Assembly (NCBI RefSeq): GCF_000299415.1
Contig: NZ_AMPG01000001.1
Coordinates: 186,001 to 250,000 of the forward strand
Direction: 5' to 3'
Source of the DNA: Candidatus Microthrix parvicella Bio17-1
Lineage (GTDB): Bacteria > Actinomycetota > Acidimicrobiia > Acidimicrobiales > Microtrichaceae
Length of the DNA: 64,000 bases
The position numbers and the translations under genes were made by a program. Under the pieces are notes generated by a model, which searched no databases, was not told the origin of the DNA, and saw only the letters and a list, made by a program, of their open reading frames with translations. Positions 35,038-49,949 of this stretch are shown one piece after another (the first letter of the stretch is position 1; each line of letters begins with the position of its first letter).

Positions 35038-35054
35038 CGTCGCGGGAGGAGCGC

Positions 35055-35286
35055 CACATCGGACCAGGGCGGGGATCCCGACGCGTCTGGCCAGGGTGGC
35101 CATCAACAACAGATTCGATTCGGACACCAGGTTCGGATGGTCGAAGACGTCCTCGACCTCGTCCGGGTCGTACAAAGGTGCGCTGGCTGGAAGTGTCTTT
35201 CTGATCTGGGTTATGATTGAATCAACACCGTCATCCTCCTCTTCAGTATGACACTTTCTGCGTTTCAACAGCTCCGACCAAACCAC
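35055..35286 (-). pseudogene. Remnant of an IS1380-type transposase (N-terminal fragment)
   Basis: A minus-strand reading frame beginning about 35286 contains DPDEVEDVFDHPNLVS, then ESNLLLMATLARRVGIPALV. This resembles the N-terminus of IS1380-family DDE transposases (F-D-x-P-N-L-V-S ... LA-R-x-G). Similarity stops at about 35055, close to the end of the opposing membrane protein gene, and the DDE domain is absent. The frame continues only as antisense of that gene. The family call is from memory of the motif and needs a search. Confidence 0.45.
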
Positions 35287-35573
35287 CAGACCGATGAAAC
35301 CAACCTAAATTGCTCCGCCGGCAATCGCATTCACGGCCAGACGGGCCGCTGGGACGCTTCGGGACATGGCGATGCAAGGCACACACCGCGACGCCGTAAG
35401 CATTGCTCCTTCGTTCGCCCTTCTCGACCGACGTGGAATCAGCGGTGCATGTTCATGTACGGTACTGAGCGGCAACATAGCGGAGACCCGAAAGGCGCTC
35501 ACCTGCATGCCTATTGGAACGGACAATCATGTTCACGTGGTGACGGCTACGGCCCGAGCCAATCCCCTCCCAG
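35287..35573. other. Non-coding left edge of the accessory island
   Basis: 287 bp between the transposase remnant and the FtsK-like gene. No convincing gene, tRNA or terminator. The decamer TGTTCATGTA occurs in GTGCATGTTCATGTACGG (about 35441-35458) and again just inside the FtsK-like gene (CGTGTTCATGTAGACGG, about 35621-35637). The promoter of the large plus-strand operon must lie here. Confidence 0.5.
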
Positions 35574-38534
35574 ATGAGTCTCGGAGTCGCTGTGGTTAGC
35601 GGTTCGTCTGCAAGCCGGAGACGTGTTCATGTAGACGGCGCCGACAAGCGGCCGCCGCCTCCCGGCACTCAGGGGGACCTTCGGCAACCCCGACGCCAGA
35701 ACCCTCCCGATCCCGCCTCGCCCCCCATCGAACCTCGGGTCTTTGCCGAGAACCTGTCGGAGTCCGGTCGGATTCATCACCTCAATGAGGGTGAAAGGGT
35801 TGCGATCGAACGTGTGCAATCTGTGGCTCAACGTTTCAGGAGCCTGGAGTTGGCACTGCCCTTCATGCGGACTCAATCGGAGTCCGAGCACGCTAAGCGG
35901 GTTCAGCAGTTTCGATCCCTATCTAAATCTCAGCAGACTCAGCTGACTACCGAAGAGGAACGTTCACATGCGACGGCAAGCGAGGCCGCTCGATCGACGC
36001 TCAACCAAATCATCGATGATCTCGCTCCCGGGGCCGCCTCTGCACCATGGCCCAATCTCATCGATGCAGCTGACGGTAGTTTGCCCGCAAGGCACTTCCG
36101 GGTCGGCCAAATCTCATCGGGTCCTGCTCAGGGCCTCCCCGCACTGGTTCCGCTTGTCGACGGCGCCGGCTGGTTTGTAAGCGGGGACGAGGAGCAACGC
36201 AACGCAATGGTGTTGGGTGCCCTCACCCGTTTGGTGGCTCAGTGTCCCATCAAACATCTCTCCATCACGGTCTTTGATCCGCGACTCAGCGGGCAAGTGG
36301 GCCGCTTCGTGGGCCTTCGCCGGATCAGAGGGTCCTCATTTCCGACGCCGGCCACTGATCCCAACGAGTTCGCTATGTCCGTGGAACGAACAATCAGCCA
36401 GGCAGCCGTCAACGCTGAGCTTGCGGTTTCTTCCGGAGTCAGCAGCTTGGGCGACCTCTGGCGCAACGCAGACGTTCCTGAAGGAACACTGTCGGTCGTC
36501 GTAGTCCTCGACTACCCGTTCGGCATCGACGAACGCCTCCAGCAGCAGTTGGTTCGGGCTGCGAAGGTCGGAGGCCGCACGGGGGTCTCACTTCTCGTCG
36601 CCACCGATGAAGCGGTTACCCCTGCCGCCGAGGTCCACATCGATGATCTGCGATCCGCACTGGTCGACCTCCGAGTTCAGGGCGGGAACCTCACGGCGCC
36701 GCAGTTCAACGCCGGGGTATCGATCGAGATCGATCCGCGGCCGGACGATGAAGTCATTTCGTCGGTTGTGGAACTGTCGGCGATACGGTCGAGTTCGGTT
36801 GCGGGCCCACTCATCCCATTGATTGAGTTGCTGGAGGCGGACATCAAGTCCCCGTGGAAGCACTCGGCAGCGGCAGGCCTCGGTGTGGTGATCGGGCGCT
36901 CCGGTCGCGATCCGATGACCTTGGATCTCCGCACCGAAAACCCGCCCTTACCCAACCTGCTGATTGGAGGCGCCGTCGGGCAAGGCAAATCAAACTTGTT
37001 GCTGAGCATCATCTACGGGTTCGCCACGCGCTACTCCCCCGATGAACTCGAGCTTTACTTGCTTGACTTCAAACGCGGTTTGGAGTTTAAAAGATTCGAC
37101 GCAGACAGCCAGGGCGAGGCCTGGCTTCCCCACACCAAGGTCCTCGGCTTGGAGTCCAACCACGCGTTTGGTGTCGCTGTCCTCCAACACGTGCACGATG
37201 AGATGGAGCGGCGCTCAGATCTGTTCAAGTCGGTCAACGCGGGTTCGATCGACGAGTATCGAGGAACCACCAAGGCGCTCATGCCGCGAGTATTGCTCGT
37301 AATCGACGAGTTCCATGTGCTGTTCGAGGGCGACGAAGGCTACGTGGACACCTGCGTCGAACTCACCGAGGCATTAGCGAAGCAGGGCCGAGCGTACGGG
37401 ATCCACCTGCTCCTGGCTTCTCAGACTATCTCCGGCATTCGCGGGCTCGCCGTGAAGGGCGACGCAATCTTCGGACAGTTCCCCCTCCGCATGTCACTCA
37501 AGAACACGCCGGGCGAGTCGCAGGCGATCCTGAGCCAGGGAAACAAGGCGGCTTCCGAGCTCACCTATCGGGGCGAAGCGATCCTCAACAAGAACTTTGG
37601 CGGCAATCCCGAGCTCGACAACATTCGGGGCACCATCGCTTTCGCAGAACCATCCGCCATGGCGCAACTGCAACGAGACCTCTGGACCCTCCGACACGGA
37701 GAACGCCCAGTCCTGTTCATGGGGAACGACTTCGCTGAACTCGATCCGACATCGCTCGGGGAGCACCGTCGACTTTCTGCTCTCCAGGACTCGGCCGACG
37801 GCCTTTCAATCTGGTTAGGCCGTCCCGTAGCGGTCTCGGCTGAACCCAGGGTCCATCACATGGCGCCCGACGCCGACCAAGCGGTAGCCATCGTCGGAGC
37901 CGACGAGACCCTCGCTCGCGCTGCGCTTTTGACGATGATTATGACCGCCTGTCACTCCCTGGCAGGAGGGGGCACTTTGACCGTTCTCGACGGGAACGGC
38001 GAGACGGGTCAGGCCTGGTTCGAGCAAGCGAACGACTACGCAACCGAGTGTGGCGTACCCGTCAATGTACTCGCCCAGCAAGACATTGCAGCGTTTCTTC
38101 GTGAGGCCGTTGCTCAACGAATGGACAGCGGTGCATCGGGGCATGATCTCATCGTCGGCCTCGGTCTTCAACGAGTGCGCGGAATGGATGAAGAGGTCCA
38201 AGGCGACGATGGGAACGAGGACGAGTATGTCCCGCCGGGCCCGTCAGGGCGGACGGCGCTAAGACGGTTGGCCGAGGAAGGGGCCATCCATGGCATGTAC
38301 TTGATCGGTTGGTGGCACAATCTACGAACCCTTGAGGTAGACCTCTCCTACGAGCCAGGTGTGGCACTGTTCGTCACCGCAGATCTTGGCCGCGATGACC
38401 TGAAATCAATCGCAGGCCCTTCCGTCTCCCGTGTCGACGGCCGTCCTCGCCTCGGCATTCATGACCGATCGGGAGAGGGCCTGGAGACCGTGGTGCCCTA
38501 CGCCGACCCCAACGCGTCGGGGGTGCCCGCATGA
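35574..38534 (+). CDS. Soluble FtsK/SpoIIIE-type ATPase of the accessory system
   Basis: 986 aa. Residues 1-60 are Pro/Arg-rich and 60-150 predicted coiled coil. A middle part (about 180-440) looks like a degenerate NTPase or accessory fold (IKHLSITVFDPRLSGQVGRF). The FtsK/SpoIIIE core follows: Walker A GGAVGQGKSNLL (about 464-475), LELYLLDFKRGLEFKRF, Walker B RVLLVIDEFHVLF (about 572-584), IHLLLASQTISG (about 610) and MSLKNTPGESQAIL. A second, degenerate ATPase-like repeat occupies 740-950. No membrane helix or FHA domain, unlike EccC/EssC of type VII secretion. It probably powers substrate or DNA movement for the linked proteins. It overlaps the next gene by 4 bases. Confidence 0.8.
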   Translation: MSLGVAVVSGSSASRRRVHVDGADKRPPPPGTQGDLRQPRRQNPPDPASPPIEPRVFAENLSESGRIHHLNEGERVAIERVQSVAQRFRSLELALPFMRTQSESEHAKRVQQFRSLSKSQQTQLTTEEERSHATASEAARSTLNQIIDDLAPGAASAPWPNLIDAADGSLPARHFRVGQISSGPAQGLPALVPLVDGAGWFVSGDEEQRNAMVLGALTRLVAQCPIKHLSITVFDPRLSGQVGRFVGLRRIRGSSFPTPATDPNEFAMSVERTISQAAVNAELAVSSGVSSLGDLWRNADVPEGTLSVVVVLDYPFGIDERLQQQLVRAAKVGGRTGVSLLVATDEAVTPAAEVHIDDLRSALVDLRVQGGNLTAPQFNAGVSIEIDPRPDDEVISSVVELSAIRSSSVAGPLIPLIELLEADIKSPWKHSAAAGLGVVIGRSGRDPMTLDLRTENPPLPNLLIGGAVGQGKSNLLLSIIYGFATRYSPDELELYLLDFKRGLEFKRFDADSQGEAWLPHTKVLGLESNHAFGVAVLQHVHDEMERRSDLFKSVNAGSIDEYRGTTKALMPRVLLVIDEFHVLFEGDEGYVDTCVELTEALAKQGRAYGIHLLLASQTISGIRGLAVKGDAIFGQFPLRMSLKNTPGESQAILSQGNKAASELTYRGEAILNKNFGGNPELDNIRGTIAFAEPSAMAQLQRDLWTLRHGERPVLFMGNDFAELDPTSLGEHRRLSALQDSADGLSIWLGRPVAVSAEPRVHHMAPDADQAVAIVGADETLARAALLTMIMTACHSLAGGGTLTVLDGNGETGQAWFEQANDYATECGVPVNVLAQQDIAAFLREAVAQRMDSGASGHDLIVGLGLQRVRGMDEEVQGDDGNEDEYVPPGPSGRTALRRLAEEGAIHGMYLIGWWHNLRTLEVDLSYEPGVALFVTADLGRDDLKSIAGPSVSRVDGRPRLGIHDRSGEGLETVVPYADPNASGVPA

Positions 38535-39067
38535 CGTCGACCAACGCAGATTACGACCGGTACGTCAGCGAGGTACATGCCACGGTCGAACGCGAAGCAA
38601 ACCACAGCCGCCTACTCCAGGCGGCCCGAGAAGCCGGGACCGCCGAGGTCGACGCCGCTCTCAAGGATCAACGCACGGCGGCGGCCGCCCTCAAGAACCT
38701 AGATTCCTCCCTCAGGCACCTTCGACCTTCCGTGAACCAGTTGGTCGCTCGCGCTTCGGTTTCCCTCAACGCGACCACCGAGCCACTGAGCTTCTCAGGC
38801 CCGGACCAGTTTGAGCGTGAAGTGAAGGGATTGACGGCCGAACTCCGCGGTGCGGAACAGTCATGGCAGTGGGTGGAGAAAGCACGTCGCGAGAACGCCC
38901 AACAAGTCGCTAACACGGTCGGCTCTTCCGATTCGGTTCAGCTTTCGATTGGTGGCACATCCGTCGCTGAACCACCGGGCGATGCCTCCTGGAATCGCCG
39001 CCTGGTCATCGGCCTCAGCGCCGCCGTGGCTGTCGCCTTGGCCGTCGTCCTCATCTTGCTTACCTAG
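38531..39067 (+). CDS. Tail-anchored coiled-coil protein
   Basis: 178 aa. Two long helices (about 5-60 and 95-130: VEREANHSRLLQAAREAGTA, EREVKGLTAELRGAEQSW), a Ser/Gly linker and a single C-terminal membrane segment LVIGLSAAVAVALAVVLILL ending one residue before the stop. The topology is cytoplasmic coiled coil with a tail anchor. ATGA overlap with the FtsK-like gene implies coupled translation, so it may dock that soluble ATPase to the membrane (inference). No family recognised. Confidence 0.72.
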   Translation: MTSTNADYDRYVSEVHATVEREANHSRLLQAAREAGTAEVDAALKDQRTAAAALKNLDSSLRHLRPSVNQLVARASVSLNATTEPLSFSGPDQFEREVKGLTAELRGAEQSWQWVEKARRENAQQVANTVGSSDSVQLSIGGTSVAEPPGDASWNRRLVIGLSAAVAVALAVVLILLT

Positions 39068-39105
39068 TTACTACGAACTACTTTGCTCATCAGGAAGGAG
39101 GGACC

Positions 39106-39567
39106 TTGCTCCATCGTTTCAGGCAGCCTCAGAACACGACACACTTGACAAGGTCCATACCTCCTCACCAGCAGACATCGCGCGTCGCCACAACCAACCA
39201 GTTCGCCATCACGCAACGAAGCCGCCCGAGGAGCGCCCAACTGGTCGACGCGATCCTTCGCATCGACTCGACCGTTGACCCCGCAGGGCAGCGGGAACTG
39301 ATGCAGTGGATTCGCGAGGCCTACGACGACCGTGGCGGCGGAGAGCTGGTCGGCCTGTTCAGCAAATGCTACTTAGGGCACCCGTATGTTGATCATCGCA
39401 TGACCATCGTTGGTTCAATCATCGAACATTTCACCCACGACCAGGTCGTCCCACCACCGTTCACGGCCGCACGACCTTTGGTCAGATCAGACGCCTACCT
39501 GTTTGTCGAGATCTATTCAGATGGCCAGGTCATACCCATTCGTTCTGACGGATCGCAAGTCGCCTAG
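39106..39567 (+). CDS. Small protein with possible effector-associated-domain-like helical fold
   Basis: 153 aa from TTG 39106, preceded by GGAAGGAGGG. The first 40 residues look disordered. Residues about 43-110 (QLVDAILRIDSTVDPAGQRE, ..GGGELVGLFSKCYLGHPYVD) recall the L-V-x-A-L-L ... D-P-x-G-R ... C-x2-H-P pattern of effector-associated domain 2 adaptors in actinobacterial conflict systems. The C-terminus is a short beta-like piece (DAYLFVEIYSDGQVIPI). The similarity is by eye and weak; otherwise function unknown. Second small gene after the ATPase. Confidence 0.6.
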   Translation: MLHRFRQPQNTTHLTRSIPPHQQTSRVATTNQFAITQRSRPRSAQLVDAILRIDSTVDPAGQRELMQWIREAYDDRGGGELVGLFSKCYLGHPYVDHRMTIVGSIIEHFTHDQVVPPPFTAARPLVRSDAYLFVEIYSDGQVIPIRSDGSQVA

Positions 39568-39586
39568 CAACCATGAAGGGTTTCCC

Positions 39587-41344
39587 ATGGCAGAGTACGT
39601 TGACCTCTCCCCCATCACGAGGGCAATCGGCAACCTCGAGTCCAACCTGTCGAGTCGAATCGACGGCGTTGGAACAGAGGTCGGCCAGGTCCGCGGCGAC
39701 CTTCGGCTCGCCTCCGACGAGCTCCGTCAGCTCAAGGCAGACTTTGAGGAGTTCACACAGACCGCCGCAAGGGTCGCCAACGTTCAGCGGTCTGAGACGA
39801 AAGTTGCAGCACTCCGCGCCGACCTCGACCGCCAGTTTGGCCACTACACCAAGGTCCGCCTCACATCGGTTGGCATACTTCAGAGCTTCGACGTAGGCAA
39901 CGTCTCCAACGACACCGTCTCATCGGTGAGTGAGGAGTTGATGATCCAGACTCCGAGGTACTGGCTGGCACCAGCGTTGGTGGCGCTGGCAGCCTGGTCG
40001 AAGGACGATCCGGAGATGGCCGAGAAGTCCGTTCAGGAAACATTCTCACGGGACAAGAACAAGGCCAGCCTCTTCTTCGCTCTCGTGCTGCGCCGTCAGG
40101 GTCGCATCGAGTCGTCGGTCAGGTGGCTCCGCCACTACCTACTGACGCTGGACCCGAGTTCGTTGACTCGCGAGTTTGCGGTGATCCTGGAGGCAGCGTC
40201 GTACGACGCCTTTGGCACCACAGGTCGCGACGTGGTGTCCGAGTCGATGGGGCGCTGGTGCTCCGAGCTCCGCGACCGGAAGGACATCGTTGAGGCCCAG
40301 GTCGAACAATGGGCGAGCGAGATCGGCGTACAACGCATGCAGTTCTCCGCCGGCGGCGAATATGCGGCCTTGGCCCACCTCACGCCGGAATGGAAGACCC
40401 TCGAGTTCCAGCTGGAGATGGCCTCCGCCCTGCCTGCCACGATCGAGAAGTACGACGCCATTGCGAAGCACGACGCGTCGATTCCCAGTTTCCTGGAGGA
40501 CCTCCTCGACGACATACTCGATCAGTTGGTGACCGAATATGACGAGGAGGAGTTGCCCCTCAAGCGTGAGGTGGTGTTCCACGACGCTGTAATCGAGGAG
40601 GACGGCGACCTGACCCGCGCTCGAGAACGAGCTGACGAGCTGAATAAGGCATTGGAGGAGACGTCTGACGTCGTGTCGATGCAAACGCAAGCCGCCATCA
40701 ACCCCGACACCCTCGGTGTCAGCACACAGACCCAACGAATCGCGATCGGCGTCGGGCAAGAGGACTTCCGAGTCGCGGTCGGTCGGTATTGCGTCTACTA
40801 CCGGTCATCGGCTGTCGATGAGGTCAGCCTTTCCTTCACCGGAGATCACTCCAACTACGCCCAAACCTACAGCTTTCAGGGCTGCACCATCGAAACCTCC
40901 GAACAGGAGGATGCAGGCGTCGCTCGCCTGGCGGCCACCTGGCAGTCAACCTTTGCGGAGTACATCAAGACGATCTCGTTCAAGAACAGCTGGTACGTCG
41001 CGCCGGCAATGATCGGCTTCCTCGTCGGCCTCATCGGCGGGGCGATCCTCGGCGCAGTTATCGGGTTCCCCATCATTGGGATTCTTCTCGGCTGGATCGC
41101 AGCCGGCGGCGCCGTGTTCTTCCTCGGACAACAAAAGCGCCAGAAGTGCGATGACGCCGTGGCGGCCGCGTGGCGCCAGCAGGAGGCTGCCGTCGAGCAC
41201 AGCGTCTCGATGTATCGCGACGCCATGGCCCAGTTCGTCGACCTACAACTGACCTACGGAGAACTCGACTCCAACGAGGACGGCCTCCTCCAAATCATCG
41301 ACACGTGGCCAACCGCCACCCGAACCAAGAAAATGGTGGCGTAG
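39587..41344 (+). CDS. Coiled-coil protein with glycine-zipper membrane hairpin
   Basis: 585 aa from ATG 39587 with AAGGG seven bases ahead; a longer frame upstream overlaps the previous gene out of frame. Residues 5-90 form a coiled coil (VGTEVGQVRGDLRLASDELR). About 110-300 is a helical, repeat-like domain with LAPALVALAAWSKDDPEMAE and ALVLRRQGRIESSVRWLRHY, reminiscent of TPR spacing. About 430-465 is an amphipathic piece. About 468-513 is a hydrophobic hairpin with many small residues (MIGFLVGLIGGAILGAVIG, FPIIGILLGWIAAGGAVFF). A helical C-terminus follows. GxxxG-rich hairpins favour oligomeric membrane assemblies, so this is the best candidate for a membrane channel or scaffold of the system. 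Confidence 0.72.
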   Translation: MAEYVDLSPITRAIGNLESNLSSRIDGVGTEVGQVRGDLRLASDELRQLKADFEEFTQTAARVANVQRSETKVAALRADLDRQFGHYTKVRLTSVGILQSFDVGNVSNDTVSSVSEELMIQTPRYWLAPALVALAAWSKDDPEMAEKSVQETFSRDKNKASLFFALVLRRQGRIESSVRWLRHYLLTLDPSSLTREFAVILEAASYDAFGTTGRDVVSESMGRWCSELRDRKDIVEAQVEQWASEIGVQRMQFSAGGEYAALAHLTPEWKTLEFQLEMASALPATIEKYDAIAKHDASIPSFLEDLLDDILDQLVTEYDEEELPLKREVVFHDAVIEEDGDLTRARERADELNKALEETSDVVSMQTQAAINPDTLGVSTQTQRIAIGVGQEDFRVAVGRYCVYYRSSAVDEVSLSFTGDHSNYAQTYSFQGCTIETSEQEDAGVARLAATWQSTFAEYIKTISFKNSWYVAPAMIGFLVGLIGGAILGAVIGFPIIGILLGWIAAGGAVFFLGQQKRQKCDDAVAAAWRQQEAAVEHSVSMYRDAMAQFVDLQLTYGELDSNEDGLLQIIDTWPTATRTKKMVA

Positions 41345-41348
41345 TCCA

Positions 41349-41636
41349 ATGACCAGCTCAAGCACCTCGGAAGACCCCAGCGAGATCGATCTGACCAACG
41401 CTGCTGCGCCCCCCGACGCCTCACCACTGATCCGGCGGACGAGGAGTGTAGGGAAGTTCCAGCGCAGGCCAGAAGCTGCAGGAACCGGCTCCAAGGACGG
41501 CGTCGTAGTTGCCCGAGGGGTCCTCGCCATGCGAGCCAAGCAGGGCAAATCGCAGACTTCCCGCGAGCGATTGATCGCAGGGAATCTGCCAGACTGGGAG
41601 CCATTGCCGCCGGGAGAACTCACCGTCCAGCGATGA
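41349..41636 (+). CDS. Small hydrophilic protein of the accessory operon
   Basis: 95 aa. Acidic Ser/Thr-rich N-terminus, then a basic middle (LIRRTRSVGKFQRRPEA), a short hydrophobic VVVARGVLAMRAKQGKSQTS and DWEPLPPGELTVQR at the end. No family recognised. It starts 5 bp after the previous stop and ends 12 bp before the next start, so cotranscription is nearly certain. Confidence 0.6.
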   Translation: MTSSSTSEDPSEIDLTNAAAPPDASPLIRRTRSVGKFQRRPEAAGTGSKDGVVVARGVLAMRAKQGKSQTSRERLIAGNLPDWEPLPPGELTVQR

Positions 41637-41648
41637 ATGTAACCTGAG

Positions 41649-42260
41649 ATGACTGGCTCCGAACTTGTCGGCAGAACTCCATACGAGACCTGGGTGCTGA
41701 CCTTGCGAGCTTGGGGCAATGACCCGATGACCCCGCTCGACCACCTGCCGTCCCTCGCCCTTGAGACCTTCACCCCCGATACCTACCAGCGCCTCTTCAA
41801 CCACCTGCGCCAAGCTTTGCAGTCCGTCACCACCCAGTGGAGCGATGATCTCGGCAAGACACTGCGGTTGAGCCAGGACCGATTCGCGCTTGGACACGAC
41901 CTGGTGCAGCTCAGGACCAGGCTCACTCGACGGGTGCAACTGGTGTCGCATCCATCGCTGCCTGCCGAGGCACGGGATTCATTCACCAAACAGACCGCCG
42001 AGGACATTGCCAGAAGCCAACAGCAGATCGTGGATCACATCCAGCGACAGGCCAATGAAGGGCACCTCAGCAGGACCGAGGCCGAGGGGATGCTCGATGT
42101 GGTCCGTGAGCACTCCTTCGAAGCCGTCATGGCATTCGCAGCAAACTCTGCTGGTCAGCGGGTAGTCGCCGCTCCGCTCAGGGAAGTCAATCCAACCGAA
42201 GCGCCCGGCTCTAAACGCTGGCGCAAGATACGGCCGTTCACGGCCCGAGGAGACGAGTAG
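41649..42260 (+). CDS. Helical protein of unknown function
   Basis: 203 aa, soluble and mostly helical (YQRLFNHLRQALQSVTTQWS, VQLRTRLTRRVQLVSHPSL, FTKQTAEDIARSQQQIVDHI, EAEGMLDVVREHSFEAVMAF). One conserved-looking patch, GRTPYETWVLTLRAWG, is at the N-terminus. No catalytic motif. Its TAG stop shares one base with the GTG start of the AAA+ gene, so the two are translationally coupled and may interact; a substrate-chaperone role is possible but has no direct support. Confidence 0.62.
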   Translation: MTGSELVGRTPYETWVLTLRAWGNDPMTPLDHLPSLALETFTPDTYQRLFNHLRQALQSVTTQWSDDLGKTLRLSQDRFALGHDLVQLRTRLTRRVQLVSHPSLPAEARDSFTKQTAEDIARSQQQIVDHIQRQANEGHLSRTEAEGMLDVVREHSFEAVMAFAANSAGQRVVAAPLREVNPTEAPGSKRWRKIRPFTARGDE

Positions 42261-43810
42261 TGCCGGACAAGGCGACAGTTGTCGACAGCGTCGAGCGTTA
42301 CCTCAAGGCCCGGGTCCCGCTCATCGTGATCCAGTCCTATGAGCCGAACCGGGTCATGGAAGTTCTGAGTGAGTGCGCGAGCACGCTTAGCACCATGCAG
42401 TTCTATGAGCACTCCCGAACCGAGGGTGTTCGGGATCTCCTCTCCAGCCAATCGGTGTCAGACGAGACTTCCTTGGTTGTCGCACTTGAGCATGCTCGGA
42501 CAACCTTCAAGGCCCGAACGAACGTCAACTTCATCTTCACCGACGTCGACGAGCTGGACCAGGAGACCTCCCAGTCGCGTCACTTTGCCGAGATGGTCCG
42601 ATTGGCCGAATCCCGCAGCTGCAGCATCATCGTCGTCACGACCAAACCGGTGTGGCCCGGTCTGTCTCGACTCGGCATGACCGAACGCCTCGACCTGCCG
42701 ACTATGGACGAGATGGCCGAGTCCCTTAGCGACTTCATCGAGGGCAACCGCGGACCAGTCACGGTGGAGTGGGACTACGACGACCTGCGACGAGCTGCCG
42801 AGATCCTGTCGGGCATCACCGAAATGGAGGCCATCAACGTTCTGGCAAGCATGATGGCGAGGGGTCAACTCAATAAGGACGACATGCCAGAGCTGTCCCG
42901 ATACAAGGATCGCATCTTCGGTGACCTTTCGGGTATCGAGCGAGTGCAGCTCAAGGAAGGGGCTAACAAGGTAGGAGGTCTACACACACTTCGGGAGTGG
43001 CTGGCGACCAAGCAGTCGCTCATTACGGCCGATCTCTCGCAGACCACCTTTGCCCCGCCGAAGGGCATGCTGCTCGTCGGCGTCCCCGGGTGCGGCAAGT
43101 CGCTCTCGGCAAAAGCGGTTGCGCAGGAATGGATGCTGCCGCTGTATCGGCTGGACATGTCGTCGATCATGGGCATGTACGTCGGGCAATCGGAAAGTCG
43201 GCTGCGGGAAGCACTCGAGATGGCCGACCGTGTGGCGCCTTGCGTGCTCTGGATCGATGAGATCGAAAAAGCACTCGCCTCGGGCCCTGGCGACGGCGGC
43301 ACCACCCGCCGCTTGATCGGCCAGTTCCTCTTCTGGCTTCAGGAGTCCACCTCCAAGGTGTTCATCGTGGCGACGGCCAACGAGGTCCAGTCACTCCCCC
43401 CCGAGCTGCTCCGCAAGGGACGATTCGACGAGATCTTCTTCGTGGATCTCCCTGATCCGGCAGACCGCGAAGAGATACTCGACCTCTACTTCACCCATCA
43501 CTTCACTCAAGCACTGTCGCCCTCGCTCATCCAGGAGCTGGTGACCCTGTCGGATGGATTCTCCGGGAGCGACATCGACGCCGTCGTCAATGAACTGGCC
43601 CAGAAGATGTTCGGGCGTGGGACCGGCGCGCTGCCCAGCGACGACGAGATCCGACTGCATTTCCGTAACGTGATTCCCTACAGCCAAACCAACGCCGAGG
43701 ATGTCGCCGCCATCCGGGCGTGGGGCCAGCATCGTTGCCTCCCCGCAGGCAGCCTGGCGTTGCCGGAGAGCGACGGTCAGAGTCAACCCCGCCGAGTCGT
43801 GCTGACGTAG
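42260..43810 (+). CDS. Ycf46-like AAA+ ATPase
   Basis: 516 aa, GTG start at 42260. Residues 1-200 form the degenerate N-terminal RecA/AAA-like domain of the Ycf46 type ([44 protein letters not shown]). The active AAA module follows: Walker [19 protein letters not shown] (about 271-288), pore-loop region [10 protein letters not shown], Walker [13 protein letters not shown] (about 327-338), sensor 1 VATANEV and arginine-finger [10 protein letters not shown] (about 383). The C-terminal lid has [15 protein letters not shown]. It probably remodels protein complexes. Last gene of the seven-gene plus-strand operon; its stop is 6 bp from the opposing operon. Confidence 0.85.
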
Positions 43811-43816
43811 TCAGTC

Positions 43817-44434
43817 CTACTTCGGAGGTGGTGACCCGTGATCGCCGTATGGGGGGTCCTTTGGGGGCCCCTTCCACTTCGTTTCTTCGTTGCTGTTTTT
43901 CTGTACATCATTCAGCTTTTCGTGATCATCCGAGATCCCAGCCGCCTCCATATTGGCGTCCCGGTCCTGATACCAACTGCGGGCCCATCCCACAGCCCCT
44001 TTGGGTGCCGGCCGCTCAATCCTCAGCTCGTGGCCCTGTTCGGGAGTTGGTGCTGGTTGGTACCGGTTCTGGTTGGGGAACGGCGGGTTGAGGGCCGCAT
44101 GCGCGACAACGTTTGCGGTGCCGATAGCCGCGATTCCAAACTTTCCGGCCTTCTCCCATCCCGACGAACCGCCCCCCTTTGCAAGGCGGGCGGCGAAAGC
44201 ACTCGCGCTCCTGTTGAACTCCTCAAGGTCAGAGGTGGCTGCCCGAGCACCAGCCTGCGCCGCTTGAAGCCCAGCATGTACCGCCTTGACGCCTTGCACT
44301 CCCTTCGCATCGGGAATCTTGTTGGCCAAGTGCGACGCCGATTTCGCAGCGGCCGAAACCACCTCGAGGAATGGGCTCCCGGAGTCACCAAGCGCACGAA
44401 CTGAATCGGCGAGCTTCTCCAGATCTGATGCCAT
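43817..44434 (-). CDS. Candidate secreted substrate / effector of the accessory system
   Basis: 205 aa from ATG 44434 (MASDLEKLADS), with AAGGTAGGG upstream. Residues 1-105 are two or three Ala-rich helices like WXG100/LXG carrier regions (VSAAAKSASHLANKI, VKAVHAGLQAAQAGARAATS). A Gly/Ala-rich hydrophobic patch GKFGIAAIGTANVVAHAAL follows, then a Pro/Lys-rich polar tail with SWYQDRDANME, which contains a YxxxD pattern as in type VII export signals, and a PPKDPPYGDHGSPPPK end. No enzymatic motif or Cys. Third gene of the minus-strand operon after the WXG100-like pair; the order suits a carrier-plus-substrate unit. Confidence 0.6.
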   Translation of the reverse strand: MASDLEKLADSVRALGDSGSPFLEVVSAAAKSASHLANKIPDAKGVQGVKAVHAGLQAAQAGARAATSDLEEFNRSASAFAARLAKGGGSSGWEKAGKFGIAAIGTANVVAHAALNPPFPNQNRYQPAPTPEQGHELRIERPAPKGAVGWARSWYQDRDANMEAAGISDDHEKLNDVQKNSNEETKWKGPPKDPPYGDHGSPPPK

Positions 44435-44444
44435 GTCCCTACCT

Positions 44445-44735
44445 TCAGCGAGCTTTGCGAGCGTGCTTCTGATGCTGCTTGTCCTGAGCGGCGAGCTCGC
44501 CGGCCACGTCCTTGGCTGCCGCCGCGACCTGCCTGAATCCTGCGGCAGAGGAGCGGATACTGTCAGAGCTGGATCCGACAAGGGCGATCATCTTTCGATC
44601 GTCTTGAGTTGCGGTGCCCTTGATGGCTGCGGACGTCTTGGACTCAAGACTCGACAGCCTCTTTGCTAGGTCATCCAGCGCGGCGGCTTGCTTCGACGCG
44701 TCCCTGGCGATCTGGCGGAACTCAGCGGCAGACAT
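44445..44735 (-). CDS. WXG100-sized helical protein A (no Trp)
   Basis: 96 aa. Helix (FRQIARDASKQAAALDDLAK and on), central turn SAAIKGTATQDDRK at about 35-48, then a second helix (IRSSAAGFRQVAAAAKDVAG) and a basic tail KQHQKHARKAR. Size and helix-turn-helix plan are those of EsxA/B-type proteins, but I-K-G replaces W-x-G. It aligns with the upstream 86-aa gene product around AI-x-G-[ST], suggesting a duplicated pair that may form a heterodimer. 9-10 bp separate it from each neighbour. Confidence 0.65.
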   Translation of the reverse strand: MSAAEFRQIARDASKQAAALDDLAKRLSSLESKTSAAIKGTATQDDRKMIALVGSSSDSIRSSAAGFRQVAAAAKDVAGELAAQDKQHQKHARKAR

Positions 44736-44741
44736 CAGCTG

Positions 44742-45002
44742 TCAGAGGGATTGACCATACGACTGGGCGATCCTGGCGACGTTCTGAAGCTGAGACGTCG
44801 CCTGCTTGACCGCGGTGGATGCCTGTTGCAAAGCCGACATGATTTCAGCATCCTTGCGCTGCGAACTCCCTGCGATCGCCTGCTGCACCGCCGCCTGGTG
44901 CTTAGACAGCTCTCGTTCGTATCCCGCCAGACTTCCAGCCGTCTTCTTGGAGGAGGCCGCAAGTTGGTTCACCGTGCTCTTGAGTTGCTTCAGTTGTGAC
45001 AT
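44742..45002 (-). CDS. WXG100-sized helical protein B (no Trp)
   Basis: 86 aa from ATG 45002, with AAGGA seven bases ahead. Helix 1 (LKQLKSTVNQLAASSKKTAG...ELSKHQAAV), turn QAIAGSSQRKDAE at about 40-52, helix 2 (MSALQQASTAVKQATSQLQN). Rich in Gln/Ser/Ala, with no Cys or Trp. Paralogous in plan to the 96-aa product that follows. First gene of the operon, so likely the most abundant product. Confidence 0.65.
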   Translation of the reverse strand: MSQLKQLKSTVNQLAASSKKTAGSLAGYERELSKHQAAVQQAIAGSSQRKDAEIMSALQQASTAVKQATSQLQNVARIAQSYGQSL

Positions 45003-45312
45003 TCTCGATCCTTCTTGATCTCATTTGCGACGGATTTCGGACGGCAGACGCAGGCGGAATGGCTGCCCCAAAGACCGGCGCCCAACCCTGCCCTGTTGTT
45101 GCCACACCCCGCAGGCCTTGCGCCAGCGATCGCGCTGCATCGACCTTCTGCAAGTGTCGACGAATCCTTAACCGAATTTGACAAGGAACACCTCTTTTAG
45201 TTTAGAGCAATCTTCGAACAGTTACAAAGCTCGAATAGTCATCCTCACTCTACTTACGTTCGAGACGCTTGCCACAATCGATCTCCAAGCTACGGCGGGG
45301 CGTGGAGAGGTG
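45003..45312. other. Intergenic region upstream of the WXG100-like operon
   Basis: 310 bp between the start of the 86-aa gene and the stop of the next minus-strand gene. Visibly less GC-rich than its surroundings around 45170-45260 (for example CTCTTTTAGTTTAGAGCAATC). It must contain the operon promoter; no clear -35/-10 pair, terminator or small gene could be picked out. Confidence 0.5.
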
Positions 45313-46155
45313 TTACAAGTTCGCTGGATACATACGCTGATCAGGTCCCCGGGCCTCGAAATCGAAGTCATCGCTCAGCCGAAGACCAAAACACGCGTAG
45401 TCCTCAGTGAGCCCCTGGCTTCGACACCAAGAGGCGCCTGCGCGAGCGTCGCTGAACCCACCTCTGTGCACAACCGCCACGGTGCCTCCCTTAGTCGACC
45501 GGAATTCGTCTCCCCGAATCCCGACAAAGTCACCTCCATACTCGCTCGAGTACTGATCGACCTGCTCTTGAACGGTCTCCGCCCACGACGGGTCATCCGC
45601 GTTCGCGACCTGGCTCCAGACGACGGCGACTGCCTCGCCATAAATTTCGTCGCGTTCCATATAGATCGACGCCGAGTCTTGCGACGTGCCTGACGATTCA
45701 TCCAGCGACGGCTGAGGCGACGAACCGTCGGGGGAACCAAGGCTGGACTCGTCAGCGGCTGCTGAATCAAGGTTCCGTCCGGTCGGTCCGTCCGAATCAA
45801 GCGAGTCGCCGCTGTCACTCGAATCGCCCAACCCCCCAGCCGAATCATCTGACTGCACGACTTCATCACTCGTGTCCTCAGAACTGGCCCTTCCCCCAAG
45901 CGCAACCGCAAGCACACCTCCTCCTGCCAAGAGTAGGCCTACAATTGACATGCCGATCAGCGTGGTCTTCGAGTTTGAGGTTCTAGAACCAGCGACGCTC
46001 GTCACGGATCCCAGGCTGATGCTTGGCCGGGTATCACCAGCGTGTGCAGGTTGGGCGCTGGGCTGTTGCAATACCGGAGACGGTGGAGCAGGGAGGTCTC
46101 GGCTCCGTGGAGGGGCCGGCAGGTCGGGCGAAGGTGGACGAACTGGTTCTGTCAT
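45313..46155 (-). CDS. Single-pass membrane protein with acidic linker and extracytoplasmic domain
   Basis: 280 aa; AGGAG precedes ATG 46155. Residues 1-60 are a Pro/Ser-rich cytoplasmic part. TTLIGMSIVGLLLAGGGVLAVALGG (about 64-88) is the membrane helix. Residues 90-155 are a Ser/Asp-rich linker (SDDSAGGLGDSSDSGDSLDS). The C-terminal 120 residues form a small domain with SIYMERDEIYGEAVAVVWSQ, GGDFVGIRGDEFRSTKGGTV and two Cys (ASWCRSQ, DYACFGL) that could form a disulfide. This layout is common in surface sensors and in the tails of actinobacterial Ser/Thr kinases. Divergent from the amidase gene, and probably works with it outside the membrane. Confidence 0.68.
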   Translation of the reverse strand: MTEPVRPPSPDLPAPPRSRDLPAPPSPVLQQPSAQPAHAGDTRPSISLGSVTSVAGSRTSNSKTTLIGMSIVGLLLAGGGVLAVALGGRASSEDTSDEVVQSDDSAGGLGDSSDSGDSLDSDGPTGRNLDSAAADESSLGSPDGSSPQPSLDESSGTSQDSASIYMERDEIYGEAVAVVWSQVANADDPSWAETVQEQVDQYSSEYGGDFVGIRGDEFRSTKGGTVAVVHRGGFSDARAGASWCRSQGLTEDYACFGLRLSDDFDFEARGPDQRMYPANL

Positions 46156-46394
46156 GGTTCAACTCCTGGGATAGCCCACGGCGTCGAGGTGCTGGACCGC
46201 TGACGAATCCAGCACGGCGAACCACGATGGGTGACGAGAACGTCGCTCATCGTAGCTCTGGAAGGTGTGGCAAACCAGAAATCGGTCTAGGATCTGAGTT
46301 CTGACCATCCACAGCCTAGTCACGGACTGAAGTAGTACGCTCATGGTTGATTCCTGTTGGGCTGATGGACAGGGTGCAAGGACGAGCCAACGGC

Positions 46395-48143
46395 ATGTGC
46401 GGAATTCGGGACTGCGATCCCATGGGAAGTATCACAACCAGTCGACGCCGGTTCTTGGGCGCGACCGCAGTAGTCCCGTTGGCTGCCACCCACGGCCTCA
46501 CCAAGCGTTCTGAGGTGACACACAGGCCTGGGCCTGGCGCGTTGAACGCCCCACAGATACGACGACGACGGGATTGGGCGCCCGACCTCCCCATCAAAGC
46601 CCCCATCGAGGCTGAGCAGGTCAGATTTCTCCTCGTCCACCACACCTCCGAGCCGGGTTCCGACTATCAGCCCGAGGACGTCGAGGGTATCTTACGTCAG
46701 ATTTACAGCTTCCACACCGGCGCGGAGAAGGACTGGCCCGACATCGCGTACAACTTCTTCGTCGACAAGTTCGGAACAATCTGGGAGGGCAGGACGGGAA
46801 GTGTCGATGGTCCAATTCGGGGCTCGGCAACCGGCGGAAACCAGGGATTCAGTCAGTTGTGCTGTTTCTTGGGCGACTTCGAAGCCGAGCCGCCGCCCGA
46901 AGCAGCGGTGTCATCGATGATCACATTGCTGGCCTGGCTTGCGGACCGATACAAGGTCGACGTCACTCCGGGAGCCACGACCACGTTCGCCTCCAGGGGC
47001 TCCAACCTTCACCCGCCAGGTAAGGAGGTGATCACTGGAACGATCTCGACCCACCGACAGATGTCGCAGACGGCTTGTCCGGGGACCGCGTGCCACCAGA
47101 TGGTGGTCGACCAGTTCCAAGGGCTGGTCGCAGCTCAGATCCCTCCCGCCGCTCCCCCGGGCACCACCGAGCCGACGACGCCGCCAACAACAAGTTCTCC
47201 CGGAGTCGTTGCCACGCCGCCGTCCGACTCAACGACCGTGCTCGAGGCCGGTCGTAATCGCGCTGAGCAGGCCGGGGCCCCACGTCCCACCGGCTCCAGA
47301 ACCGACTCCGGGAGCGGGCCGCTGCCGATCATCCTCGGCTCTGGAGCCGCCGCGGTCGCAGGCGCGCTGGCCGTAGGGGCCTGGTCCAATACGCGTTCGA
47401 GAGCCATCGCGCCGGCCGTCTCCGGCGAACCGGGCACTGCTGGGCTCCCCACGGCAACCTCCAACCCAACCAATGCGATCGCCCCGTCAGCATCGCGATT
47501 CGTTCCTTCGGTAAACGAGCCGGTTGGCAGTGAACCAAACCGTAACGTGACGACAGTTGGTTCACCGGCCGTCTGGTGGCCAAACACGACATCGTCCGGC
47601 ACAGCAGGCGCAGCGACTGCCAACGAGACGCTCGTCTTCTGGCTCGTGGGGTCCGCCTACTCACAGCCGGCTCGAACCCGCATCGAATCCTCGATGCGGG
47701 CCTCGCTCGACCGGTTCGGCGCCACGGGCTGGGTTAGCCCCGGACCGTGGTTTACCCAGATGCTCTCCACCATTTTGCCTGGCCTCACGCATCCGCCGGG
47801 GAGTGGCCTCCTGCTTGGGCTCGCGACGAGCGGACAGTGCCTCGCACTCAGCGCCGGCAACGCACGCGTCGACATTCCGGAGGTCACCGGCCGCCATAAG
47901 CCTCGGCCTCCGTTGCCGGGAATCGACCCTCGTTCCGGCATGGCCCACCGCTGGAACATCCCGGTCGGTGTCACGTGGTTGGCCGGCTGGCTGGGAGGAC
48001 CTGGGACGCTGTCCGTTGGCCCCGAGATCGTCGCAGCGAACCTCGCTCAGGGACGCGAGCAGGATCCCGAGCTCTTGGGGAGCGCCGAGGGGTACCTGGG
48101 CGTGCGCCTCGTTCCGCCAGCCAACAAGCCGGAGTCTCCCTGA
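46395..48143 (+). CDS. Tat-exported PGRP/amidase_2 peptidoglycan hydrolase with membrane segment and C-terminal domain
   Basis: 582 aa from ATG 46395; starts at 46347 (TTG), 46365 or 46422 are also in frame. A twin-arginine signal TSRRRFLGATAVVPLAA is near the N-terminus. The amidase domain (about 60-245) has all zinc ligands of active PGRP/T7-lysozyme amidases: His in FLLVHHTSEPG (about 80), His in STHRQMSQ and Cys in TACPG (about 225), plus the catalytic Tyr in DIAYNFFVDKFG. A Pro/Thr linker, a membrane helix LPIILGSGAAAVAGALAVGAW (about 310-330) and about 250 residues of unrecognised domain follow (ETLVFWLVGSAYSQPARTRI, GSGLLLGLATSGQCLALS). It should cleave MurNAc-L-Ala bonds locally. It could open peptidoglycan for the secretion-like system. 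Confidence 0.82.
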   Translation: MCGIRDCDPMGSITTSRRRFLGATAVVPLAATHGLTKRSEVTHRPGPGALNAPQIRRRRDWAPDLPIKAPIEAEQVRFLLVHHTSEPGSDYQPEDVEGILRQIYSFHTGAEKDWPDIAYNFFVDKFGTIWEGRTGSVDGPIRGSATGGNQGFSQLCCFLGDFEAEPPPEAAVSSMITLLAWLADRYKVDVTPGATTTFASRGSNLHPPGKEVITGTISTHRQMSQTACPGTACHQMVVDQFQGLVAAQIPPAAPPGTTEPTTPPTTSSPGVVATPPSDSTTVLEAGRNRAEQAGAPRPTGSRTDSGSGPLPIILGSGAAAVAGALAVGAWSNTRSRAIAPAVSGEPGTAGLPTATSNPTNAIAPSASRFVPSVNEPVGSEPNRNVTTVGSPAVWWPNTTSSGTAGAATANETLVFWLVGSAYSQPARTRIESSMRASLDRFGATGWVSPGPWFTQMLSTILPGLTHPPGSGLLLGLATSGQCLALSAGNARVDIPEVTGRHKPRPPLPGIDPRSGMAHRWNIPVGVTWLAGWLGGPGTLSVGPEIVAANLAQGREQDPELLGSAEGYLGVRLVPPANKPESP

Positions 48144-49949
48144 TCAGCAGCCGTCGAACCATGACAGCACAGCGTCACCACCATCGATACCTGATGCCGC
48201 GACCATCAGTTCGTGCACCCAGGTCAGCGTTGCCGACTCGATGCCGTCGCCAAGGTCACAGCGTCCGGCAAGCAGACCGGCGGCCTCATCCCACGGGCCT
48301 TGATGGACCGGGAGGTCGAGGTCGCCGAGCGCCCTGGTGGACACCCGGACGCCTGCGCGTCCCATACCACTGCCCGCCATGGCAGACACCAGGCTCAGTG
48401 TGCTGACCGGCGAACACAGCACAGCCAACAGATGGCCCAGTGTGATGCCCTTGGGCACTCCGGCGATCACCGGGGTCAGGCCGATGGCCCGCCCCTGGCC
48501 GTCGGGCGCCGCCTCGATCACTCGGGTCTGACTGGCGACGAGCACTTTGGGCACCAACTGGCGCTTCGCCCAGGCCGTGGTCGGTGCATCGTCGGCTGCC
48601 AGCGCTCCCAGGTCAACCACCGGCGACTCCCAACGCCGCTTCCCAAACCTCATCGACTTCCCGCCCCACCGACAAACGCCCGGATCGATCAGCCCGGAGG
48701 ACACCAGCGCCGCGAATCCGGCCGGCACCTCCGGGCGCCCCTCCCGCTCGGTCAGGGTGGCTTCCTGGGCCAGTTCCAACATGGCGTAGTACTCATCGCG
48801 AAACCCTGCGCTGAACCTCACGACCTCCCCCAACCGACCCAGCGGCGTGCCGGATGTCCGGCGGACCGCTGGGAGCCCCTCGGCGGCCGCCACCAGTGCA
48901 CCCCAACTCTCGCTGGAGAGGGCCCCAACCGGAACCATCCCGAGCTCCATTTCGACGGTCGAGCCGCCCCTCACCGGAACCTCCCCGACCGGTGCAGCGG
49001 CGAAGCCACCCAGCACCGGCGCCCAGACCTCAACCGCAGCACCGAAGCCCCCATCACCCACCCAGGCGGCGGCCAGAGGCATTCGTTTGGTCACCGTCTG
49101 GCGCACGCCCGCCGCATCCCGGGCGGCCAGCACCGAACGGGGCTGGATCAAACACACCACGCCTGTGTCCGCAACCAGTTCGGTTGCAGCGAGAAGAAAC
49201 AGCGCCGCAGTATCGGTATAGGCGCCCACCTCGGCCCCGAATCGTTCCGTCAGTGATGAGCGACGGCGGGCGTCATGGCGGGTTCCCGCCCTGAGCTGAG
49301 CCAGAAACGGCGGGTTGCCAACAACCCACCCCACCGGCGCACCACCGATCGCCCGAGCCAGGACATCGGGTTGGGTCAGCGCGTCGCAGCACACCAGGGT
49401 CGGTTCGTCCGATGACAACCCTGAGGCACGGGCACGAGCGACGGCTTCGTCGGCTCCGGGCGCATCGGCCTCGTCGAGCGCCCACCGGGCCAGGGCGGCG
49501 CGGGCCACCACCAGCACATCGGGATCCAGGTCGGCACCGACCAGCCGGCTCAGGATCCCCCCCACCGAGGTCGATCGGCCATCAGCGCCCGCCTCAACCC
49601 ACAGATGCCGGGCAACCGCCACCAGAAACGCACCGGCGCCGCACGCCGGATCGAGCACCACCTCGCCGGTCCGGAAGCGCTCGCCAACGCGGATTGACGC
49701 CGCAAAGTTCACCAGGCCCGACGCGAGCGCCGGACTGGTGAAATGCACGCCGGCCGAACGCCGAACCGCATCGGCCAGCATCAACTCGTACAGGGGTCCG
49801 AGCAGGTCACAAATCGCCGCACCGGGCGGAGGGTCCAGCGCCGCAGCAGCGCCCCCGGCCAGGTGGTCGGTCACGTCACACCACGACGGCAACTCGCTTG
49901 GGGCACGACCGTGTACGGCCAAGGTGGCGACCGCCGACAGCGGCGACAC
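48144..49949 (-). CDS. Orphan N6-adenine DNA methyltransferase
   Basis: 601 aa from GTG 49949. SAM-binding motif I is DPACGAGAFLVAV (100-112); catalytic motif IV is VVGNPPFLAQL (NPPF at 212-215); AGVHFTSPALASGLVNFAA precedes them. This is the N6-adenine (Eco57I/N-6_Mtase-like) class. The C-terminal half (about 330-600: GKSMRFGKRRWESP, LVPKVLVASQTRVIE) resembles target-recognition regions. No nuclease or specificity gene is adjacent. The frame stays open upstream to a CTG (50018-50016) overlapping the helicase stop, encoding LNVLADPTARWLTRTASDF, so translation may begin there (624 aa). Confidence 0.82.
   Translation of the reverse strand: MSPLSAVATLAVHGRAPSELPSWCDVTDHLAGGAAAALDPPPGAAICDLLGPLYELMLADAVRRSAGVHFTSPALASGLVNFAASIRVGERFRTGEVVLDPACGAGAFLVAVARHLWVEAGADGRSTSVGGILSRLVGADLDPDVLVVARAALARWALDEADAPGADEAVARARASGLSSDEPTLVCCDALTQPDVLARAIGGAPVGWVVGNPPFLAQLRAGTRHDARRRSSLTERFGAEVGAYTDTAALFLLAATELVADTGVVCLIQPRSVLAARDAAGVRQTVTKRMPLAAAWVGDGGFGAAVEVWAPVLGGFAAAPVGEVPVRGGSTVEMELGMVPVGALSSESWGALVAAAEGLPAVRRTSGTPLGRLGEVVRFSAGFRDEYYAMLELAQEATLTEREGRPEVPAGFAALVSSGLIDPGVCRWGGKSMRFGKRRWESPVVDLGALAADDAPTTAWAKRQLVPKVLVASQTRVIEAAPDGQGRAIGLTPVIAGVPKGITLGHLLAVLCSPVSTLSLVSAMAGSGMGRAGVRVSTRALGDLDLPVHQGPWDEAAGLLAGRCDLGDGIESATLTWVHELMVAASGIDGGDAVLSWFDGC

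What the first reader, a model, noticed from the sequence alone, without database searches (positions are those of the whole stretch)
44445..45002. Paralogous pair of WXG100-sized proteins lacking the WXG tryptophan
The 96- and 86-aa products share a helix-turn-helix plan, and the turn aligns as AIKGTATQDD / AIAGSSQRKD, that is [AI]-x-G-[ST] where W-x-G would be. Adjacent duplicated genes of this size next to an FtsK-like ATPase are the classic EsxA/EsxB arrangement, but the hallmark residue is gone, so standard motif searches would miss them.
Basis: partly seen in the sequence, partly recalled or inferred. Interest (0 to 1): 0.75.

Follow-up and report, generated by a model that had tools for sequence, protein, structure and literature searches.

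The report
Tryptophan-less Esx-like pair with EccC-type ATPase
Two small neighbouring genes encode hairpin-shaped proteins resembling the partner proteins of bacterial type VII secretion but without their signature tryptophan; relatives of the first sit beside the same secretion-type motor gene in many other actinobacteria, so this looks like a widespread, unmodelled branch of a secretion or conflict module known so far only from genome surveys.

Summary
Two genes (86 and 96 aa, minus strand, 6-bp gap) form an operon with a third (205 aa). They are distant paralogues: BLAST sees nothing, but a profile built without any window protein scores the 86-mer 52 bits and the 96-mer 22 bits, against 14 bits for the best reversed ORF. 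Single-sequence AlphaFold gives two helical hairpins turning at AGSS and GTATQ. The 86-mer belongs to a family of 86-residue proteins with no Pfam or NCBIfam model. Its only invariant column is the turn glycine (G45). One relative carries W-D-G in that register. In all 18 loci read at length, the family lies within about 5 kb of a soluble FtsK-like ATPase closer to EccC/EssC than to DNA translocases; the window has such an ATPase too. Some related loci add Hsp70/GrpE/TPR or toxin-immunity genes. This matches the soluble EssC-like/WXG100 module reported in 2012 and 2024 (PMC11090510), including a partner without WxG. Corrections: the FtsK gene lies 6.2 kb away on the other strand (the adjacent ATPase is Ycf46/CDC48-like AAA), and descent from WXG100 is not proven, because reversed controls score nearly as well. 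Verdict: new variant of a known kind; mechanism inferred.

The parts
44742..45002 (-). 86-aa W-less Esx-like helical hairpin protein; member of the 86-residue family called F1 here
   Evidence: 41% identical over all 86 residues to the Rhodococcus plasmid protein L132; 52 bits to an F1 profile built without it; helices 3-44 and 49-86 predicted
44445..44735 (-). 96-aa W-less Esx-like helical hairpin protein; distant F1 paralogue and presumed partner
   Evidence: 22.0 bits to the F1 profile versus 14.0 for the best reversed ORF; hairpin predicted, helices at fusion residues 92-127 and 133-184
43817..44434 (-). 205-aa third gene of the operon (start ATG at 44434): candidate cargo, helical N-terminal half and proline-rich C-terminal tail
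   Evidence: 10-bp gap after the 96-aa gene, RBS AAGGTAGGG; weak F1-like score in its N-terminal half, 9.0 bits versus 0.7 reversed; AlphaFold model poor, pLDDT 47; no family
35574..38534 (+). 986-aa soluble FtsK-family ATPase of the EccC/EssC type; a single Walker A (GAVGQGKS, residue 466)
   Evidence: Pfam FtsK_SpoIIIE 7e-19; NCBIfam EccCa 4e-26 versus FtsK 0.024; profile against PDB: EccC 4nh0 5e-38, EccC5 4e-30, YukB 1e-29 versus FtsK 1e-10; no segment above KD 1.4
38531..39067 (+). 178-aa protein, largely helical, with one C-terminal transmembrane segment: possible membrane anchor for the ATPase
   Evidence: KD19 maximum 2.99 at residue 159; same position and topology as L132_203, L175_166, L176_166, L177_176; no detectable sequence homology to them
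39587..41344 (+). 585-aa transmembrane protein of the downstream AAA module (membership of the same machine uncertain)
   Evidence: same gene order in L007, L008 and L009, which have no FtsK in reach
41349..41636 (+). 95-aa linker protein of the AAA module
   Evidence: position between the TM and 203-aa genes; no family
41649..42260 (+). 203-aa protein of the AAA module
   Evidence: counterparts of 207, 146 and 143 aa in L007, L008 and L009
42260..43810 (+). 516-aa Ycf46/CDC48-like AAA ATPase, convergent with the Esx-like operon
   Evidence: Pfam AAA 6e-34; 50% identical to the Eremiobacterota protein in L007

Best explanation
The two genes encode a pair of Esx-like partner proteins without the WXG tryptophan, serving a soluble EccC/EssC-type FtsK ATPase. 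Shown: paralogous pair, hairpin prediction, family-wide linkage to that ATPase, ATPase class, single Walker A, no transmembrane segment in the ATPase. Inferred: the two hairpins pack into an antiparallel four-helix complex, alone or along the helical N-terminal part of a larger cargo (the 205-aa third product here; helical-domain proteins, some toxin-like, in relatives). The complex is recognised by the central active ATPase domain. The ATPase is held at the membrane by the tail-anchored 178-aa protein instead of its own transmembrane helices. ATP hydrolysis moves or releases the cargo, most likely as a type-VII-like export step in bacterial competition or conflict. The Trp position (residue 43) is taken by Ile, and the conserved Gly45 makes the turn.
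For: F1 profile hits in 92 of 299 genomes of one order; of the 18 such loci read at length, all have the soluble FtsK within about 5 kb (16, the other two). Closest family of the ATPase is EccC/EssC, not FtsK. Adjacent small helical genes recur: L167, L168, L171, L174 (F1 + 81-83 aa + FtsK); L169/L215 (two F1 paralogues, then TM, GrpE, Hsp70, TPR, FtsK); L091 and L125. L132: FtsK, TM protein, F1, 272-aa two-part protein, 134 aa. A true WXG100 (30.8 bits, cut-off 27.3) lies beside the soluble FtsK of L165. A WHH/colicin-type nuclease with an SMI1/KNR4 immunity gene lies beside that of L166. The 88- and 94-aa genes next to the FtsK of L164 have WXG100 as best Pfam hit. F1 member L180 has W43-D-G45 and WXG100 as best Pfam hit, E=3.3e-4. 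Precedent: PMC11090510.
Against: No EccB/EccD/EccE or other translocon gene was recognised beside the pair, so export itself is unsupported by anatomy. The window's pair is on the opposite strand and 6.2 kb from the ATPase. No YxxxD/E signal in either small protein, and the C-terminal WXG100 pattern is absent. The similarity of F1 to WXG100 is barely better than to its reversal. No immunity gene was recognised beside the 205-aa gene.
Confidence: 0.6

Rival explanations
1. Intracellular conflict or stress device: the soluble EssC-like ATPase, with Hsp70/GrpE/TPR chaperones in relatives and the Ycf46-like AAA module here, remodels or assembles proteins inside the cell. The hairpin pair is its adaptor or clamp, and nothing is exported.
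For: The ATPase lacks transmembrane helices. Hsp70, GrpE, J/TPR genes are neighbours in L091, L125, L132 and L215. CoCoNuT, TerD and VWA contexts occur in relatives and in PMC11090510. No translocon gene was recognised in the cluster.
Against: Toxin-immunity neighbours in L166 and two-part cargo-like genes in L132 and L215 point to delivery. A tail-anchored partner recurs after the FtsK gene in several loci.
Confidence: 0.27
2. Generic short coiled-coil hairpins (for example subunits of the adjacent AAA/TM module) that resemble Esx proteins by convergence. The link to the FtsK is real for the family but has nothing to do with type VII partners.
For: Reversed WXG100 profiles align almost as well. 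Fold matches are generic helical bundles such as syntaxin, MukF and STAT. PDB profile hits mix ESAT-6 (E=0.012) with apolipoprotein and designed bundles.
Against: The partner ATPase is of EccC type, and WXG100-like proteins occupy the same place in sister loci L164 and L165. L180 has W-x-G in register. The AAA module occurs elsewhere without such a pair nearby.
Confidence: 0.13

Closest known systems
Soluble EssC-like FtsK / WXG100 module (Anantharaman et al. 2012 as cited in PMC11090510; CoCoNuT extension in PMC11090510)
   Same: FtsK-family ATPase closest to EssC/EccC, no transmembrane helices, one intact Walker A in the middle domain; two small WXG100-sized proteins, of which at least one lacks WxG; scattered and on plasmids in relatives
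   Different: Here both small proteins lack W and belong to (86-mer) or lie near (96-mer) a separate 86-residue family without a library model; no CoCoNuT or TerY genes were seen; the pair is in its own convergent operon with a 205-aa gene, and a Ycf46-like AAA/TM module follows the FtsK
EsxA/EsxB (CFP-10/ESAT-6) WXG100 heterodimers, Pfam PF06013
   Same: Size, helical hairpin with a Gly-containing turn at the same residue numbers (43-45), bicistronic pair, EccC-type ATPase in the cluster
   Different: Trp43 replaced by Ile, no YxxxD/E, no C-terminal HxxxD/ExxhxxxH pattern, below every family cut-off
Lap proteins and EsxC/EsxD of type VIIb secretion (PMC11217815, PMC10653861)
   Same: Small helical hairpins, some without WXG, encoded upstream of a larger helical-N-terminal cargo and needed for its export; three-gene layout as here
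   Different: Those work with membrane-bound EssC; no sequence relation was tested here, and no toxin domain was recognised in the 205-aa protein
T7SSc-T7SSj variants (PMC11217815)
   Same: EccC/EssC-family ATPase with WXG100-type partners
   Different: All are described with membrane-bound ATPases; the window's ATPase has no transmembrane segment

Membership tests
WXG100 (PF06013 / TIGR03930) | W-x-G in the turn between the two helices | tested here: not met
   No W in either protein; I43-A-G45 and I-K-G instead
WXG100 (PF06013 / TIGR03930) | Score above the curated cut-off of the family model | tested here: not met
   96-mer 12.1 bits (cut-off 27.3), 86-mer no Pfam hit; 86-mer 10.9 bits in NCBIfam (cut-off 44.85)
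WXG100 (PF06013 / TIGR03930) | About 100 residues, helical hairpin | tested here: met
   86 and 96 aa; AlphaFold2 on the read-through fusion, pLDDT 76; single sequence, so moderate weight
WXG100 (PF06013 / TIGR03930) | Heterodimers encoded in bicistronic operons (PMC3935865) | tested here: met
   Two adjacent genes, 6-bp gap, same strand
WXG100 (PF06013 / TIGR03930) | C-terminal HxxxD/ExxhxxxH pattern or YxxxD/E signal | tested here: not met
   Absent in both; YQDRD occurs at residue 155 of the 205-aa protein
WXG100 (PF06013 / TIGR03930) | Common descent at profile level | tested here: inconclusive
   hhalign F1 versus WXG100 P=4.6e-5, reversed 3e-4; F1 beats its reversal in 14 of 20 members; L180 E=3.3e-4 in Pfam
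WXG100 (PF06013 / TIGR03930) | Antiparallel four-helix dimer | not testable with these tools
   No complex prediction on hand; the fused chain forces its own topology
Soluble EssC-like FtsK/WXG100 module (PMC11090510) | FtsK-family ATPase closest to EccC/EssC, without transmembrane helices | tested here: met
   EccCa 4e-26 versus FtsK 0.024; PDB profile hits; KD19 maximum 1.39
Soluble EssC-like FtsK/WXG100 module (PMC11090510) | Only the central ATPase domain has a Walker A | tested here: met
   Single G....GK[ST] at residue 466 of 986
Soluble EssC-like FtsK/WXG100 module (PMC11090510) | N-terminal coiled coil | tested here: inconclusive
   Polar helical-looking stretch, about residues 70-150, judged by eye only
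Soluble EssC-like FtsK/WXG100 module (PMC11090510) | Two WXG100-type small proteins in the operon, one with WxG and one without | tested here: not met
   Two small helical proteins, but both lack W and they are in a convergent operon; hence variant, not plain member
Type VII secretion T7SSa-j | Membrane-bound EccC/EssC | tested here: not met
   No transmembrane segment in the 986-aa protein
F1 family (defined here) | 86-residue protein, invariant G45, linked to soluble FtsK | tested here: met
   86-mer: 41% identity over 86 residues to L132, G45, FtsK in the same cluster

The most novel reading that the evidence does not exclude
The F1 proteins are a distinct branch of the WXG100 superfamily that lost the tryptophan but kept the turn glycine, dedicated to a soluble, chaperone-associated EccC-type motor held at the membrane by a separate tail-anchored protein. 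That would be type-VII-like delivery without a membrane-embedded motor.
Probability: 0.33. Interest if true: 0.75.

Novelty: new variant of a known kind. Interest (0 to 1): 0.5.

Why it matters
Standard annotation calls these proteins hypothetical, and no library model sees them. If they are the partner proteins of a soluble EccC-type motor, then searches by the WXG motif miss a branch that reached the 0.001 threshold in about a third of the genomes sampled in one actinobacterial order (strong 86-residue matches in fewer). They also offer a natural test of what the WXG tryptophan does: a family with Gly kept, Trp absent, and one member with Trp in place.

Tried and rejected
Direct homology searches with the 96-mer in 99 related genomes found nothing. 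An F1 search over plasmids found only the Rhodococcus record. Viral contigs gave no relative of the FtsK. The adjacent AAA gene was first followed as the key partner; its module occurs with the same gene order but without FtsK in L007-L009, so it was set aside. The first FtsK alignment (A1) contained an out-of-frame slice of L094 and was discarded for A2. Contig L006 / G181:C51 in another genome is the same DNA (3 mismatches in 13,483 bp) and gives no independent evidence. Fold comparison of the fused model returned generic helical bundles; Esx dimers were not listed, which proves nothing, since they are two chains. The 178-aa protein was tested as homologue of the tail-anchored partners and failed, -1.5 bits. 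AlphaFold of the 205-aa protein was too poor to read. A defence-system scan and PHROGs gave nothing for the small genes beyond weak coiled-coil hits.

Full report
WHAT IS THERE. The window is 186,001-250,000 of contig C1 of a 4.2-Mb genome, probably of class Acidimicrobiia, judging from the identical contig deposited as an Acidimicrobiia MAG. On the minus strand, three genes follow each other: 86 aa (44742-45002), 96 aa (44445-44735) and 205 aa (43817-44434), with gaps of 6 and 10 bp. They converge on a plus-strand cluster: FtsK-like ATPase (35574-38534), 178-aa C-terminally anchored protein (38531-39067), an ORF at 39106-39567, a 585-aa membrane protein, 95 aa, 203 aa, and a 516-aa AAA ATPase (42260-43810). 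The FtsK-like gene is therefore 6.2 kb from the pair and on the other strand; the direct neighbour is an AAA protein.

ARE THE TWO SMALL PROTEINS RELATED? Pairwise BLAST finds nothing. Relatives of the 86-mer made a more sensitive test possible. A profile of 19 outside sequences, with no window protein in it, was run over 10,151 ORFs from all loci held at that point. It found the 86-mer at 3.3e-14 and the 96-mer at 7.4e-5 (22.0 bits), aligned with GT of the 96-mer on the family's GS. Shuffles of the 96-mer reach at most 15.7 bits (5,000 trials), and the best reversed ORF reaches 14.0 bits. The paralogy is real but distant.

SHAPE. The two genes are in the same frame, separated by TGA-CAG-CTG, so a read-through (TGA read as Gly, an artificial chain used only to fold both at once) could be predicted. 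The result is pLDDT 76, pTM 0.68, with helices 3-44, 49-86, 92-127 and 133-184. Both are helical hairpins bending at AGSS and GTATQ. How they pack together cannot be read from a fused chain.

THE FAMILY (F1). The nearest named relative is an unannotated 86-aa protein on a Rhodococcus pseudokoreensis plasmid, 41% identical over the whole length. A three-sequence profile then found members in 92 of 299 genomes of one actinobacterial order at E<=0.001; the weaker hits (E about 1e-4) were checked by context. Eighteen loci, chosen over the range of scores, were read at length. Sixteen have the soluble FtsK in the stretch first taken, and the other two have it just beyond. The only invariant column in 18 aligned sequences, the 96-mer included, is G45. 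None has W except L180, which reads AWDGSGH with W at residue 43, the residue number of W in the three annotated or canonical WXG100-type proteins compared; Pfam's best family for L180 is WXG100, E=3.3e-4.

THE ATPASE. NCBIfam ranks EccCa first (4.3e-26), then EssC (1.6e-20) and EccCb (3.5e-17); the FtsK translocase comes at 0.024. All are below the equivalog cut-offs. A three-sequence profile against PDB sequences finds EccC (4nh0) at 5e-38, EccC5 at 4e-30 and YukB at 1e-29, with FtsK only near 1e-10. There is one Walker A (residue 466) and no transmembrane segment. This is the description given for the EssC-like ATPases of PMC11090510: three ATPase domains with only D2 active, no transmembrane helices, two WXG100 proteins of which one lacks WxG. 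That paper cites Anantharaman et al. 2012 for the stand-alone, probably mobile version.

WHAT RELATIVES ADD. Gene orders: L132, Hsp70-TPR-GrpE-FtsK-TM-F1-272 aa-134 aa; L215, two F1 paralogues-TM-GrpE-like-Hsp70-TPR-FtsK-TM, with a divergent 287-aa gene whose N-terminal part scores 17.8 bits to F1 against 3.8 reversed; L167 and similar, F1-82 aa-FtsK. More distant FtsK relatives have W-x-D proteins beside them (L127, L128, L129, L133, L123), or a true WXG100 (L165), or a colicin-type nuclease with SMI1/KNR4 immunity gene (L166). The window's own genome also has a canonical WXG pair on another contig and an FHA-bearing EssC-like gene on a third (domains read from the sequence by eye), so the window's set is a second, different one.

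DESCENT FROM WXG100. A WXG100 profile retrieves L180 (1.5e-5) and many F1 proteins (about 6e-4 to 0.04) right after true WXG100 proteins. But reversed sequences do nearly as well: hhalign 4.6e-5 against 3e-4, and 14 of 20 members better forward than reversed. Helical periodicity explains much of the score. Descent is plausible, not shown.

HOW IT PROBABLY WORKS. By analogy with Lap and EsxBCD partners, which build a helical shaft with the N-terminal part of a toxin for export (PMC11217815, PMC10653861), the 86/96 pair would bind each other and a larger cargo, here perhaps the 205-aa product, and present it to the ATPase, which the 178-aa protein may hold at the membrane. Each of these steps is inference. 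The main rival is an intracellular device, since no translocon gene was recognised and Hsp70 partners are common in relatives.

NOVELTY. The module type is known from genome surveys; the W-less 86-residue family and its systematic link to the ATPase have no library model, and no description was found in the papers searched (subscription journals are mostly not held). New variant of a known kind.

Noticed in passing
L180:8037-8297(-): F1 family member with W-D-G at residues 43-45, a natural W-x-G form inside a W-less family.
   Followed up: partly
L095:7664-7939(-) and 8072-8545(-); L101:8484-12965(-): The same genome has a canonical WXG pair (W-V-G, W-R-G) on contig 2 and a 1493-aa FHA-containing EssC-like FtsK with a kinase-like gene on contig 6, far apart from each other.
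   Followed up: partly
window 39106-43810 (+): Module of a membrane protein, a ~150-200-aa protein and a Ycf46-like AAA ATPase recurs in Eremiobacterota (L007, 50% identical AAA) and Bacilli-type genomes (L008, L009; L010 by AAA match) without FtsK in reach; function unknown.
   Followed up: partly
window 46347-48143 (+) and 45313-46155 (-): Tat-signal-like Amidase_2 protein and a 280-aa membrane protein flank the Esx-like operon; a Tat-type amidase-like gene also lies near the FtsK of L123. A wall hydrolase for the system is possible.
   Followed up: no
L127:8631-8900(-), L128:11817-12089(+), L129:10898-11179(+), L133:12882-13145(+), L123:8381-8647(-): Esx-sized proteins with W-N-D or W-K-D instead of W-x-G, beside soluble FtsK genes, in L127-L129 together with E1/ThiF-like and JAB-like genes (judged by eye).
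   Followed up: partly
window 34826-48308; L006: A 13,483-bp contig identical but for 3 bases sits in a genome binned to another family: mis-binned contig or very recent transfer.
   Followed up: partly
L215:390-1250(-): 287-aa gene divergent from two F1 paralogues: F1-like N-terminal domain joined to an unassigned C-terminal domain, a possible effector.
   Followed up: partly
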